Assembly (NCBI GenBank): GCA_015057325.1
Contig: SVEQ01000005.1
Span: forward strand, 62,001-126,000
Direction: 5' to 3'
DNA length: 64,000 nt
Origin: Lachnospiraceae bacterium
GTDB lineage: Bacteria > Bacillota > Clostridia > Lachnospirales > Lachnospiraceae
Part shown: positions 60,223 to 63,169 of the stretch, piece by piece
How positions within the stretch are numbered: the stretch's first letter is position 1
Layout of the letters: each line of letters begins with the position of its first letter
Made by a program: the position numbers and the translations under genes
The notes under the pieces: generated by a model
The model's input: only the letters and a program-made list of their open reading frames with translations
The model's database searches: none
Told to the model about the DNA's origin: nothing

Positions 60223-61098
60223 TTAGTTGCCAATGTTATACGGCTTTACGACAAATGCATTCTTCGCAAGTTTGCTGTCTAACAATGCATTTTTAGCAGC
60301 GGTTGCCTCGTCCTCATTTTCGTATATTCCAAAAACAGTAGGACCCGAACCGCTCATAAGAGCATTTAACGCACCATGCTCTTTCATGTATGTTTTGATA
60401 TCATCAATAACCGGATATTCCGGTACCGTAACCGTTTCAAGTACGTTGCCAAGTCTGTCGGCAATGCCCTGCAAATCTCCGCTGTTAATTGCGCCAATCA
60501 TTCCGTCTATATCAGGATGCTCATAAGACTCCTTGGCATCCAAATGCTCATACACAAACTTTGTCGATACTGAAATTGAAGGCTTTGCAACCAAAATATT
60601 ACAGTCAGGCATAGGAGAAAGCGGTGTTAAAATCTCACCGATTCCTTCCGATAAAGCCGTTCCTCTCATAACACAATAAGGCACATCCGCACCAAGTTTA
60701 ACACCAAGATCCATTAACTCCTGCTTGGAAAGATTAAGTCCGAAAAGCTTCGAAGCACCATATAACGCAGCAGCACAGTCCGTACTTCCGCCTGCCATTC
60801 CCGCTGCTACAGGAATGCATTTGAAGAGGTCAACCTCCATACCCTGCTTAATTCCATGCGTATCCTTGATAAGCTTAATAGCTTTGTACACCAGATTATT
60901 CTCACCGGGACTTAAGAAGCTGAGATTCGTAGATATCCTTATCTCATCTTCCTCTATCACCTTAAATGTTAACTTATCAAACAAAGTTATTGTCTGCATA
61001 ATCATTCTAACATCATGGTATCCGTTCTCGCGTCGTCCCACAACATCCAAACCCAGGTTAATCTTTGCATACGCTTTTAATTGTAAACTCTCTGACAT
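60223..61098 (-). CDS. ispE: 4-diphosphocytidyl-2-C-methyl-D-erythritol kinase
   Basis: The 291-residue GHMP kinase has AYAKINLGLDVVGRRENGYHDV at the N-terminus and the ATP-binding PVAAGMAGGSTDCAAAL motif, and LMSGSGPTVFGI near the end. It phosphorylates CDP-methylerythritol in the MEP isoprenoid pathway. GAGGGG precedes ATG 61098. The intergenic region upstream holds the large nested inverted-repeat element, whose left edge lies about 30 bp before the start. Confidence 0.96.
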   Translation of the reverse strand: MSESLQLKAYAKINLGLDVVGRRENGYHDVRMIMQTITLFDKLTFKVIEEDEIRISTNLSFLSPGENNLVYKAIKLIKDTHGIKQGMEVDLFKCIPVAAGMAGGSTDCAAALYGASKLFGLNLSKQELMDLGVKLGADVPYCVMRGTALSEGIGEILTPLSPMPDCNILVAKPSISVSTKFVYEHLDAKESYEHPDIDGMIGAINSGDLQGIADRLGNVLETVTVPEYPVIDDIKTYMKEHGALNALMSGSGPTVFGIYENEDEATAAKNALLDSKLAKNAFVVKPYNIGN

Positions 61099-61125
61099 TC
61101 GTTCTTTCCCCTCGCATAAAACGTA

Positions 61126-61632
61126 CGCTGTAACTTTGTTGTATGTCCTTCAATCGGACACGCTCTCGCTCGGTTATTCACGCAGCGGTACGTAAGGCAC
61201 CAAAGTACGGTGCCTAAGTACCGGCGGTCATAAACGGTCCTCTTTAAAGGACATAGCAACATAAGTTACAGCTGTTTATTTGTATATTGCACGACATCGA
61301 AGGAATTGCATACATATCACACGAAAGGTATGTATTATCCACTCGATGCGACGCAAGCAACGTTATCGCTCTTTACCGGAACATATACGCTGTAATCTTT
61401 TCCAATGAATAGCAACGGGTGTTGCTGTATGTTCTTTTGTTCGGACCGTTTATGACCGCCGGTACTTCCAATGACACTCAACGAACATCGTGAGTTATAG
61501 TGTCATGCACCTACTTGGTAACGAATGCCATGCATGAGTTTAGTACCGTTGCGTGAATAACCGAGCGAAAGCGTGTCCGACACAAAGGACATACAACTCA
61601 CCCGTAGCGTCCGTCTTGAACTAATTACAGCG
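61126..61632. ncRNA. Candidate large structured RNA or palindromic mobile element (nested inverted repeats)
   Basis: Almost the whole intergenic region folds on itself. Nested arms: CGCTGTAA/TTACAGCG (61126-61133/61625-61632); 13 of 13 (61138-61150/61585-61597); 35 of 37 (61155-61191/61543-61579); 25 of 25 (61216-61240/61443-61467); and an AAAGGACATAGCAAC arm near 61245-61260 with its partner near 61421-61438. Side hairpins sit at 61195-61215 and 61471-61506, and smaller stems fill the tip. No long open frame is convincing. The outermost arm includes the stop codon of the carboxyltransferase. The strand is uncertain. Either a large ncRNA (the GOLLD/ROOL/OLE size class, none recognised) or a non-autonomous transposable element could explain it. 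Confidence 0.6.
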
Positions 61633-63169
61633 GAATATTTCCGTGTTTTTTAAATGGACGGCTCATGCGCTTACTCTTGAGCGCGTCAAGTGCACTTACG
61701 ATACGCTGCCTTGTTTCTTCAGGTTTGATAACCTCATCTACAAAGCCACGCTTTGCAGCCGTATATGGATTGAGGAACTTGTCCTCATACTGTTTAATAA
61801 GCTCTGCTCTTGCAGCTTCAGGATCTTGCGCTGCAGCAATCTGGCGTCGTCCGATAATGTTAACCGCACCTTCAGCACCCATAACCGCAATCTCTGCTAT
61901 AGGCCATGCGTACACAACATCCGCACCCATATGCTTTGAATTCATTGCAATATAAGCACCGCCGTACGCCTTTCTCATAATAAGCGTAATCTTTGGAACT
62001 GTAGCCTCTGCATAAGCAAAAAGTATCTTTGCACCGTGGCGGATAATTCCGTTATGCTCCTGTTCGGAACCCGGAAGAAATGCCGGCACATCTACCAATG
62101 ATACAATAGGTATATTAAAGCAGTCGCAGAAACGAATAAATCTTGCAATCTTATCAGATGCATCAATATCAAGTGAACCACCCATAAAGTTAGGCTGGTT
62201 GCAAACAAAACCTACAGTGTGTCCATCGATTCGTCCAAATCCTACAACAGCATTTTTAGCCCAGTGCTTCTGAACCTCGAAGAAACTGTCCTTATCTATA
62301 ATCGCATTAACAACATCGTGGACATCATAAGATTTCTTCTTATTATCCGGCACAATATTAACTATATTTGCACAATTATCTACAGGCTTACCAACCTTAA
62401 CCGGCATAGGATCCTTGTTGCTTTGAGGAAGATAAGAAAGAAGTTCTCTTACTCCGCCTAAGCAGTTCTTCTCACTCTTATAGTAGAAATGAGCCACACC
62501 CGATTTCTCTGCGTGTGTCTTGGCGCCACCAAGCTCGTCCGCCGTAAGTTCCTCACCGATAACAGTCTTAACAACCTGAGGTCCTGTTATAAACATTTTA
62601 CTTATATCCTCAACTACAAATATGTAATCACATATTGCAGGCGAGTAACATGCACCACCCGAACATGGGCCGAGTATTACCGCAATCTGCGGAATAACTC
62701 CTGATGCAATTGTATTTCTCTCAAATATTCCCGAATATCCGCTAAGTGAATCGATTCCCTCTTCAATTCGGGCTCCGCCACTATCGTTGATACAAACAAT
62801 CGGGCATCGCATCTTAAGCGCCATATCCTGAATGTGTATAATCTTTCTTGAATGATATTCTCCAAGGCTTCCTCCTATAACAGTGAAATCCTCAGAACAT
62901 GCGAATACGGTCCTCCCATTAATCTTTCCGTATCCTGTAACAACTCCATCTCCCGGAACTCTCTTCTTATCAAGTCCGAAATCATCGATCCTTGATTCAA
63001 CAAGGTCATTAATCTCCACAAATGTTCCCTCATCAAAAAGAATTTCCAAACGCTCTCTGGCAGTTAATTTGCCTTTTTCATGCTGTTTGGCAATAGCCGT
63101 TTCCCCTCCGCCTAATTTGGCTTGTTCTCTACGACTTTCCAAATCGCTTATAGCATCATTCCAATTCAT
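61625..63169 (-). CDS. Acyl-CoA carboxylase carboxyltransferase subunit (PccB/MmdA type)
   Basis: The 514-residue crotonase-fold protein is the normal length for propionyl/methylmalonyl-CoA carboxyltransferase subunits. It has EKGKLTARERLEILFDEGTF, FTVIGGSLGEYH, CINDSGGARIEEG, GPCSGGACYSPA and RKAYGGAYIAM. It transfers carboxyl between biotin and an acyl-CoA. No biotin carboxylase, biotin carrier or membrane subunit is nearby, so it may work in methylmalonyl-CoA decarboxylase (MmdA) or an acyl-CoA carboxylase whose other parts lie outside. AAGGAGG precedes ATG 63169. Its stop codon is part of the outer arm of the downstream inverted-repeat element. Confidence 0.88.
   Translation of the reverse strand: MNWNDAISDLESRREQAKLGGGETAIAKQHEKGKLTARERLEILFDEGTFVEINDLVESRIDDFGLDKKRVPGDGVVTGYGKINGRTVFACSEDFTVIGGSLGEYHSRKIIHIQDMALKMRCPIVCINDSGGARIEEGIDSLSGYSGIFERNTIASGVIPQIAVILGPCSGGACYSPAICDYIFVVEDISKMFITGPQVVKTVIGEELTADELGGAKTHAEKSGVAHFYYKSEKNCLGGVRELLSYLPQSNKDPMPVKVGKPVDNCANIVNIVPDNKKKSYDVHDVVNAIIDKDSFFEVQKHWAKNAVVGFGRIDGHTVGFVCNQPNFMGGSLDIDASDKIARFIRFCDCFNIPIVSLVDVPAFLPGSEQEHNGIIRHGAKILFAYAEATVPKITLIMRKAYGGAYIAMNSKHMGADVVYAWPIAEIAVMGAEGAVNIIGRRQIAAAQDPEAARAELIKQYEDKFLNPYTAAKRGFVDEVIKPEETRQRIVSALDALKSKRMSRPFKKHGNIPL

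What the first reader, a model, noticed from the sequence alone, without database searches (positions are those of the whole stretch)
61126..61632. A ~500-bp element of nested, near-perfect inverted repeats between accB-type carboxyltransferase and ispE
Five successive arms of 8, 13, 37 (35 match), 25 (25 match) and about 15 nt pair across a ~230-nt interior, with extra side hairpins. No known gene explains this and ordinary intergenic DNA does not look so. The outer arm uses the CCGCTGTAA end of the upstream gene. In the arms a few G-U compatible differences occur (two favour the plus strand, one the minus), so it may be an RNA under selection. Alternatively it is a recently moved MITE-like palindrome. 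It is large enough to compare with OLE, GOLLD or ROOL RNAs.
Basis: partly seen in the sequence, partly recalled or inferred. Interest (0 to 1): 0.85.

Follow-up and report, generated by a model that had tools for sequence, protein, structure and literature searches.

The report
Twin outward-facing hairpin repeat element
The palindrome is two inverted copies of a small, strongly folded, scattered repeat that spreads like a miniature transposon through gut and rumen bacteria, rather than a new giant RNA gene.

Summary
The palindrome is real (RNA fold z = -18; main arms 95% and 85% complementary), but it is not one large RNA. It is an outward-facing pair of copies of a dispersed ~90-nt structured core, each on its own long stem, with a small hairpin between. 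A covariance model finds 27 copies in this genome, copies in 25 of 25 other same-genus genomes and 160 of 397 same-family genomes. A class-wide sample hits only that family, 11 of 391. The core covaries (40 of 48 pairs) and has a GNRA loop in 71 of 83 rows. A relative lacks the element here. In another relative the core rides in miniature transposons with 10-13-bp target duplications (18 of 22 copies examined); their ends match an IS1182-like element of this genome. All 25 close module pairs tallied face outward; in 7 the partner is Rfam's orphan TwoAYGGAY RNA. Best reading: a mobile twin-hairpin element built from interchangeable folded modules. The mobiliser of the window copy and the modules' function are unproven.

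The parts
61124..61632 (.). whole twin-hairpin element between mmdA-type carboxyltransferase (61625-63169, minus) and ispE (60223-61098, minus); its right end overlaps the last codons of the carboxyltransferase gene
   Evidence: closest relative G004 has the same pair, G012 has a 40-nt core-less intergenic region
61124..61272 (-). hairpin A: locus-specific stem (CGCTGTAAC...TTGTATGTCC / GGACATAGCAAC...GTTACAGC) around core A
   Evidence: (I6, I8)
61157..61245 (-). core A, copy of the dispersed structured module; the R1 model match spans 61129-61265
   Evidence: 104.9 bits, E 6e-27
61164..61167 (-). GNRA tetraloop of core A (GAGA on the minus strand)
   Evidence: GNRA in 71 of 83 distinct rows of relatives
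61273..61385 (.). middle segment with its own hairpin (ATACATA/TATGTAT and CATCGA/TCGATG arms)
   Evidence: sequence; fold
61386..61632 (+). hairpin B: stem GGGTG..TGTATGTTCTTTTGT / ACAAAGGACATACA..CACCC around core B, ends CGCTGTAAT / ATTACAGCG
   Evidence: (I4, I5, I9)
61444..61577 (+). core B, second copy of the module; the R1 model match spans 61421-61604
   Evidence: 90.4 bits, E 7e-23
61468..61519 (+). 52-nt extra hairpin in the P3 arm of core B; absent from the orthologous copy in G004, a similar one at the same place in two other elements of this genome (L002, L003)
61567..61570 (+). GNRA tetraloop of core B (GAAA)
61377..61396 (+). sequence resembling an inverted copy of the carboxyltransferase 3' end (pairs with 61624-61643, 75%)
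   Evidence: I5

Best explanation
The element is a non-autonomous, MITE-like twin-hairpin repeat. Two structured modules of one family sit on long self-complementary arms, face outward, and flank a small central hairpin. Shown: the module is dispersed, has covarying helices, and at this site is present in two sister species and absent from a third. Shown in another species: core-bearing elements are flanked by 10-13-bp target duplications and share ends with an IS1182-like element. Inferred: the window element arose by insertion between mmdA and ispE, either as a twin element or as one hairpin later copied in inverse orientation, since A and B share their stem sequence; it has since been inherited vertically. 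Inferred: the core is kept folded because it acts as single-stranded nucleic acid, more likely RNA than DNA, for example as a protein-bound or RNase-shaping hairpin in whatever transcript runs through it. The window copy need not have a function of its own.
For: Dispersed: 27 copies in this genome. In one search, 25 of 25 other same-genus genomes have it, 4 of 10 genomes of other genera of the family, 0 of 24 genomes of other families of the order. Wider samples: 160 of 397 family genomes; 11 of 391 class genomes, all 11 in the same family. Presence/absence: the window site is filled in G000 and G004 and core-less in G012. At each of the 6 sites where I read an orthologous region in more distant relatives (window, L041, L043, L044, L047, L053) at least one relative lacks a model match. 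Transposition: in 20 stretches fetched from G015 (which has 49 model matches) 18 of 22 copies are flanked by exact 10-13-bp repeats, 19 of 22 allowing one mismatch, against 1 of 462 flank pairs from different copies. The ends TAGGYRATTGCGAAACTC match an IS in this genome with a 491-aa DUF772/IS1182-like transposase. Fold: 40 of 48 pairs have changes on both sides and 955 cells are compensated, against 291 on average in shuffles and at most 177 in slid controls. GNRA in 71 of 76 four-nt P4 loops, 83 rows in all. Architecture: 25 of 25 close module pairs tallied are outward.
Against: The window element carries no IS1182-like end, and no such end (up to 3 mismatches) occurs anywhere in the window. 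No target duplication was demonstrated for it, so its own mobiliser is unknown. The four IS copies examined do not carry the core; G015 itself gave no match to the transposase, and neither did 17 of the 26 genus genomes in all. No whole-element copy was found elsewhere in the genome: other places match only the modules or their arms. In 5 of 12 shared G000/G004 copies the stems are unrelated (26-59% identity) although site and orientation of the core agree, which simple vertical inheritance does not predict. Orientation relative to genes is not significantly biased (24 sense, 16 antisense, p = 0.27) and no sigma-70-like promoter was found, which gives no support for a transcript-specific role.
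Confidence: 0.78

Rival explanations
1. One large structured noncoding RNA gene of ~500 nt, comparable to OLE, GOLLD or ROOL, under selection as a unit.
For: Very stable long-range fold on both strands, mean long-range pairing probability of the core-A arm 0.97.
Against: No Rfam match. Only the ~90-nt modules recur; the whole was seen in G000 and G004 only and is missing in G012. The long-range pairing follows from two inverted copies. In the twin elements of other genomes that I folded the two hairpins have different stems, by eye, so no common long-range fold is expected.
Confidence: 0.05
2. The modules are conserved as single-stranded DNA hairpins (at replication or transposition), not as RNA.
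For: Outward, mirror-like arrangement in 25 of 25 close pairs tallied resembles transposon ends; no significant orientation bias to genes. One frequent non-standard pair (C.A at alignment columns 61/93, 29 of 83 rows) would be a wobble on the opposite strand.
Against: GNRA loops and a net G-T over A-C bias on one strand (24 pairs against 7) fit RNA better, though a folded single DNA strand could show both. In G015 the shared ends lie outside the core.
Confidence: 0.3
3. A functionless, recently made palindrome: a local inverted duplication with no selection on structure.
For: A and B share stem sequence not found at the other places matched in this genome; the carboxyltransferase end seems copied in inverse; stem changes between orthologous copies both keep and break pairs (where stems are alignable, 7 one-sided and 2 two-sided changes keep a pair, 5 leave it paired in one genome only).
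Against: The cores belong to a family with extensive compensatory change across genera; twin outward pairs recur in other genomes with different stems.
Confidence: 0.2
4. The hairpins serve the neighbouring genes, for example as a 3'-end or processing element between mmdA and ispE.
For: Three terminator-like sites in 61000-61800 against 0.6 expected; MITE hairpins elsewhere are reported as RNase targets (review PMC10969869, passages seen).
Against: All three terminator-like sites lie on the plus strand, opposite to both genes, and one of them is inside the carboxyltransferase gene; G012 does without the element; copies occur in all gene orientations.
Confidence: 0.12

Closest known systems
IS-derived MITEs of prokaryotes (here: ends of an IS1182-like IS)
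   Same: Short, noncoding, intergenic, palindromic; in G015 shares its ends with an IS and has 10-13-bp target duplications.
   Different: Carries a covarying three-way-junction core with GNRA loop; window copy lacks the IS ends; the core is shared by elements with different ends.
TwoAYGGAY RNA (Rfam RF01731)
   Same: Structured module on a long, poorly conserved outer stem; tandem G-A pairs reported for it (PMC4333381, passages); 25 copies in this genome, outward pairs, partner of the core in 7 pairs.
   Different: A separate Rfam model; the window element does not match it.
Small dispersed palindromic repeats (BOX, ERIC, Correia/nemis, REP), recalled and from review passages
   Same: Intergenic, multi-copy, hairpin-forming, non-autonomous.
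   Different: No sequence comparison with them was run here; the twin outward architecture is not described in the passages I saw.

Membership tests
MITE | noncoding, under ~800 bp, multi-copy | tested here: met
   27 core copies in this genome; ~210-bp elements in G015. The window element as a whole is single-copy.
MITE | terminal inverted repeats shared with an autonomous element | tested here: inconclusive
   Met for core-bearing elements of G015 against the IS in L280; not met for the window element, which has no such end.
MITE | target-site duplication | tested here: inconclusive
   Met in G015, 18 of 22 exact, control 1 of 462; not established for the window element.
IS1182 family transposase (as mobiliser) | NCBIfam IS1182 model at its cut-off | tested here: not met
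   77.5 bits against cut-off 270; Pfam DUF772 above cut-off, DDE_Tnp_1_6 22.3 bits against 25.1. Hence called IS1182-like only.
Large ornate bacterial RNAs (OLE, GOLLD, ROOL) | match to the Rfam model | tested here: not met
   Whole window at gathering scores: only a tRNA; 61000-61800 at E up to 5: three hits far below their gathering scores, none of these families.
TwoAYGGAY RNA RF01731 | match to the Rfam model at 43 bits | tested here: not met
   No hit in the window; hits of 82-106 bits in other elements of the same genome.

The most novel reading that the evidence does not exclude
Lachnospiraceae genomes harbour a class of twin-hairpin mobile elements with two slots that are filled outward by interchangeable structured modules: the new core described here, or the orphan TwoAYGGAY RNA. 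The modules act as RNA, for instance binding a host protein such as CsrA or a transposase. Some orphan RNA families would then be cargo of mobile palindromes rather than host regulators.
Probability: 0.35. Interest if true: 0.72.

Novelty: new variant of a known kind. Interest (0 to 1): 0.52.

Why it matters
It turns a single odd palindrome into a family-wide repeat with a conserved, covarying core that Rfam 15 did not recognise in the loci scanned. It also shows that a curated orphan RNA, TwoAYGGAY, occupies the same kind of slot in multi-copy elements of this genome. That makes testable whether such RNAs are host regulators or parts of selfish DNA, and it warns that a stable fold plus covariation need not mean a stand-alone RNA gene.

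Tried and rejected
Rejected: a single large RNA (no Rfam match; only the modules recur). Rejected: orientation bias to genes as a sign of cis regulation. Tried without result: the window element against plasmid and phage records by DNA similarity (no match); an autonomous partner of the TTGCTGTTTAG-ended 650-800-bp elements (no end pair at IS-like spacing recognised, though many ends lie at contig ends); a target duplication for those elements by eye (none clear). Considered and left open: stems made by inverted copying of the target. Only the window hints at it (the carboxyltransferase end); the core-less alleles at L041 and L043 showed me no such copy, by eye.

Literature: 852 papers hold two of three terms, 15 listed; 256, 12 listed; 7 papers with TwoAYGGAY, 5 listed; 2, 0 and 7 papers. 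PMC2864571, PMC4333381, PMC8040213 and PMC10969869 were seen as passages only. None of those passages describes this core, or TwoAYGGAY as mobile. This is not an exhaustive statement about print.

Limits of counts: genome scans score a limited number of first-look candidates (150, 55 per genome, 8), so copy numbers are lower bounds. The R1 model was built from 12 of the 18 copies extracted; L002, L003, L016, L028, L029 and L030 (extra hairpins or near-identical) were left out. A2 keeps all 89 matches, among them truncated ones and a few weak ones on the strand opposite to a stronger match. A2 was aligned to the model it was searched with, which favours its structure; its loci were found by an exact pattern covering the P3 arm, so P3 invariance is partly built in. 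Covariation in P1 across copies partly reflects that every stem is self-complementary, whatever made it. The gene-orientation counts use 24 of 27 own copies (26 loci tried, those shorter for being at contig ends skipped, L063 not tried) and 57 of 84 copies elsewhere (27 dropped as incomplete). For G000 it holds all 27 cores and all 25 TwoAYGGAY hits. For relatives only the best ~150 rows were printed and I entered the close pairs plus two wider ones, so it is a sample; the G004 pair orthologous to the window and two mixed G004 pairs that I saw, all outward, were not entered. Many G000 pairs are copies of one element and not independent.

Full report
OBSERVATION. The palindrome exists at the stated place. 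One search lists the arms: 61154-61191 with 61543-61580 (38 nt, 95%), 61216-61255 with 61428-61467 (40 nt, 85%), and shorter ones outside and inside. Folded as RNA the 521 nt reach -239.7 kcal/mol against -135.9 +/- 5.8 for 100 shuffles, z = -18. The flanking genes are ispE and an mmdA-type carboxyltransferase (the latter below its family cut-off), both on the minus strand.

WHAT IT IS MADE OF. A DNA search of the window's own genome (G000, 3.05 Mb, 24 contigs) with 61100-61660 gives 30 matches. The matches away from the window lie within the two module copies or their arms; no other place matches the whole element. Reading those places shows a conserved core, oriented here as GCAGACCG-TTTATGACCG-CC-GGTACTTA...TTAGTACCGCTGCGTGAATAACCGAGCGAGAGCGTGTCTGC. 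It is embedded in long stems that pair within a copy; in the single copies they differ in sequence from locus to locus. The window holds two such cores facing outward: A on the minus strand and B on the plus strand (E 6e-27 and 7e-23; no other match at E up to 1 in 64 kb). The long-range palindrome follows from that arrangement plus stem sequence shared by A and B.

THE CORE. I aligned 12 of 18 extracted copies and built a covariance model (R1: 136 positions, 48 pairs). Its parts, in order: an outer stem P1; an internal loop (usually TAA or AAA on one side, GT on the other); P2 (GCAGAC/GTCTGC); a three-way junction with P3, a long arm whose tip has a GA-rich internal loop; and P4, a short hairpin closed by a GNRA loop. 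On 89 matches in 80 loci from named genomes (83 distinct rows) 91.3% of cells pair, 40 of 48 pairs show changes on both sides, and 955 cells are compensated. Shuffles give a mean of 291 and slid controls at most 177. P4 has a GNRA loop in 71 of 76 four-base loops, 71 of 83 rows. Among well-paired columns G-T exceeds A-C 43 to 21 in P1 and 75 to 54 in the core; pair by pair 24 lean to G-T and 7 to A-C. One frequent C.A pair (29 rows) goes the other way. These facts favour a fold of this strand as a single strand, RNA more than DNA, but do not prove it.

DISTRIBUTION. There are 27 copies in this genome at E below 1e-7; the 14 further rows are opposite-strand matches at the same sites. Of 60 genomes, 30 have it: the own genome, 25 of 25 others of the genus, 4 of 10 of other genera of the family, 0 of 24 of other families of the order. 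In a wider sample 160 of 397 family genomes have it, 141 of 334 genera. In a class-wide sample 11 of 391 have it, all 11 in the same family. A few titles say Clostridium, Clostridiales, Clostridia or Bacteroides; these are labels of MAGs and were not checked.

MOBILITY. G015 (contig lengths coincide with records CAMEFI01; an inference) has many near-identical core-bearing elements of ~210 bp with ends TAGGYRATTGCGAAACTC. In the 20 stretches fetched, 18 of 22 copies have exact 10-13-bp target duplications, 19 with one mismatch allowed, against 1 of 462 flank pairs from different copies. This genome carries one IS with the same ends, spanning 1753 bp, and a 491-aa transposase. Pfam DUF772 is above cut-off, and the NCBIfam IS1182 model scores 77.5 bits against a cut-off of 270, so I call it IS1182-like. 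Its relatives in G007 and on Butyrivibrio proteoclasticus pCY360 have similar ends and matching flanking repeats; the own copy's flanks match at 9 of 10 bases, and the Roseburia copy shows no such repeat. None of these four IS copies contains the core, and G015 gave no match to the transposase. The window contains no such end, so what moved the window element is not shown.

THE SITE. In G012 the two genes are 40 nt apart with no core. Core B of G004 lacks the 52-nt P3 hairpin that copy B of the window carries; a similar hairpin sits at the same place in two other elements of this genome. At five other sites (L041, L043, L044, L047, L053) at least one relative has no model match. At L044 G013 has the core, G003 a degenerate match (E 5e-5) and G012 a partial one. 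So these elements come and go, and hairpin sub-modules differ between alleles.

STEM TURNOVER. Of 12 orthologous G000/G004 copies (10 loci plus A and B of the window), P1 is 88-100% identical in seven and 26-59% in five (L039, L042, L043, L054, L056), yet site and orientation agree in all five. In L040 and L047 P1 is 94% and 91% identical while five core pairs each changed on both sides with at most one single-sided change, as if a hairpin tip had been exchanged en bloc. Whether the five are new insertions at preferred sites or replaced stems is unexplained.

TWIN ARCHITECTURE AND TwoAYGGAY. A second family in this genome (about 650-800 bp, ends TTGCTGTTTAG...TAAACAGCAA) has the same plan: hairpin with module, small hairpin, hairpin with module. 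One module is often the Rfam family TwoAYGGAY: 82-102 bits in four of six such elements scanned, 25 copies in G000, and hits in 10 of 36 genomes searched, all 10 among the 22 of the genus. Every close pair (gap under 600 bp) that I tallied is outward: in G000 1 core/core, 5 TwoAYGGAY pairs and 7 mixed pairs; elsewhere 7 core/core and 5 TwoAYGGAY pairs; 25 of 25 in all (sampling limits under Tried and rejected). The seven twin core elements of other genomes that I folded have different stems on their two hairpins, by eye. TwoAYGGAY was listed as a probable RNA, not cis-regulatory (table entry in PMC2864571), while Rfam types it as cis-reg; later it was proposed as a CsrA-binding RNA with a poorly conserved outer stem (PMC4333381). 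This genome has one csrA gene.

MECHANISM. Most likely the element is a twin-hairpin, non-autonomous mobile repeat whose modules are kept as folded units. Transposition of core-bearing elements is well supported in a relative; for the window it is inferred from presence and absence. RNA function is inferred from the covariation, the GNRA loops and the strand bias. Against a transcript-specific role: no significant bias in gene orientation (24 sense, 16 antisense, 10 divergent, 7 convergent, p = 0.27; own genome 11, 6, 4, 3) and no promoter-like site.

VERDICT. It is a new variant of a known kind, of moderate interest. The regular outward arrangement and the link to TwoAYGGAY are the surprising parts.

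Noticed in passing
L031:3303-3466, L032:6170-6333, L033:4920-5083, L036:7650-7813 (own genome); 25 copies in G000: Rfam TwoAYGGAY RNA lies inside 650-800-bp multi-copy palindromic elements, often as an outward pair or paired with the new core; a hairpin in L031 reads ACATGGATGT, which resembles the CsrA consensus as I recall it.
   Followed up: partly
L280:324-2076 (own genome, C9): Full-length IS1182-like element with 491-aa transposase and the ends used by core-bearing MITEs of G015; the only match of its transposase in this genome.
   Followed up: yes
L054 and L060 (own genome): A ~58-nt hairpin is inserted directly after the GNRA loop of P4 in two otherwise different cores; like the P3 insert it carries the GA-rich tip motif.
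   Followed up: partly
L040 against L218:1012-1147; L047 against L227:1017-1153: P3 tips exchanged en bloc between sister species while the stems stay 91-94% identical.
   Followed up: partly
L039, L042, L043, L054, L056 and their G004 counterparts: Same site and same orientation of the core but unrelated stems in two sister species.
   Followed up: partly
window 61377-61396 and 61624-61643: Possible inverted copy of the carboxyltransferase 3' end inside the element.
   Followed up: partly
L198:1843-1966 (G015): Rfam RT-5 RNA hit of 67.3 bits near a core-bearing MITE.
   Followed up: no
L342 (G309:C28), units starting at 799, 906 and 1014: A unit of about 107 bp repeated in tandem inside the gap of a twin element, running into the arm of the second core.
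   Followed up: no
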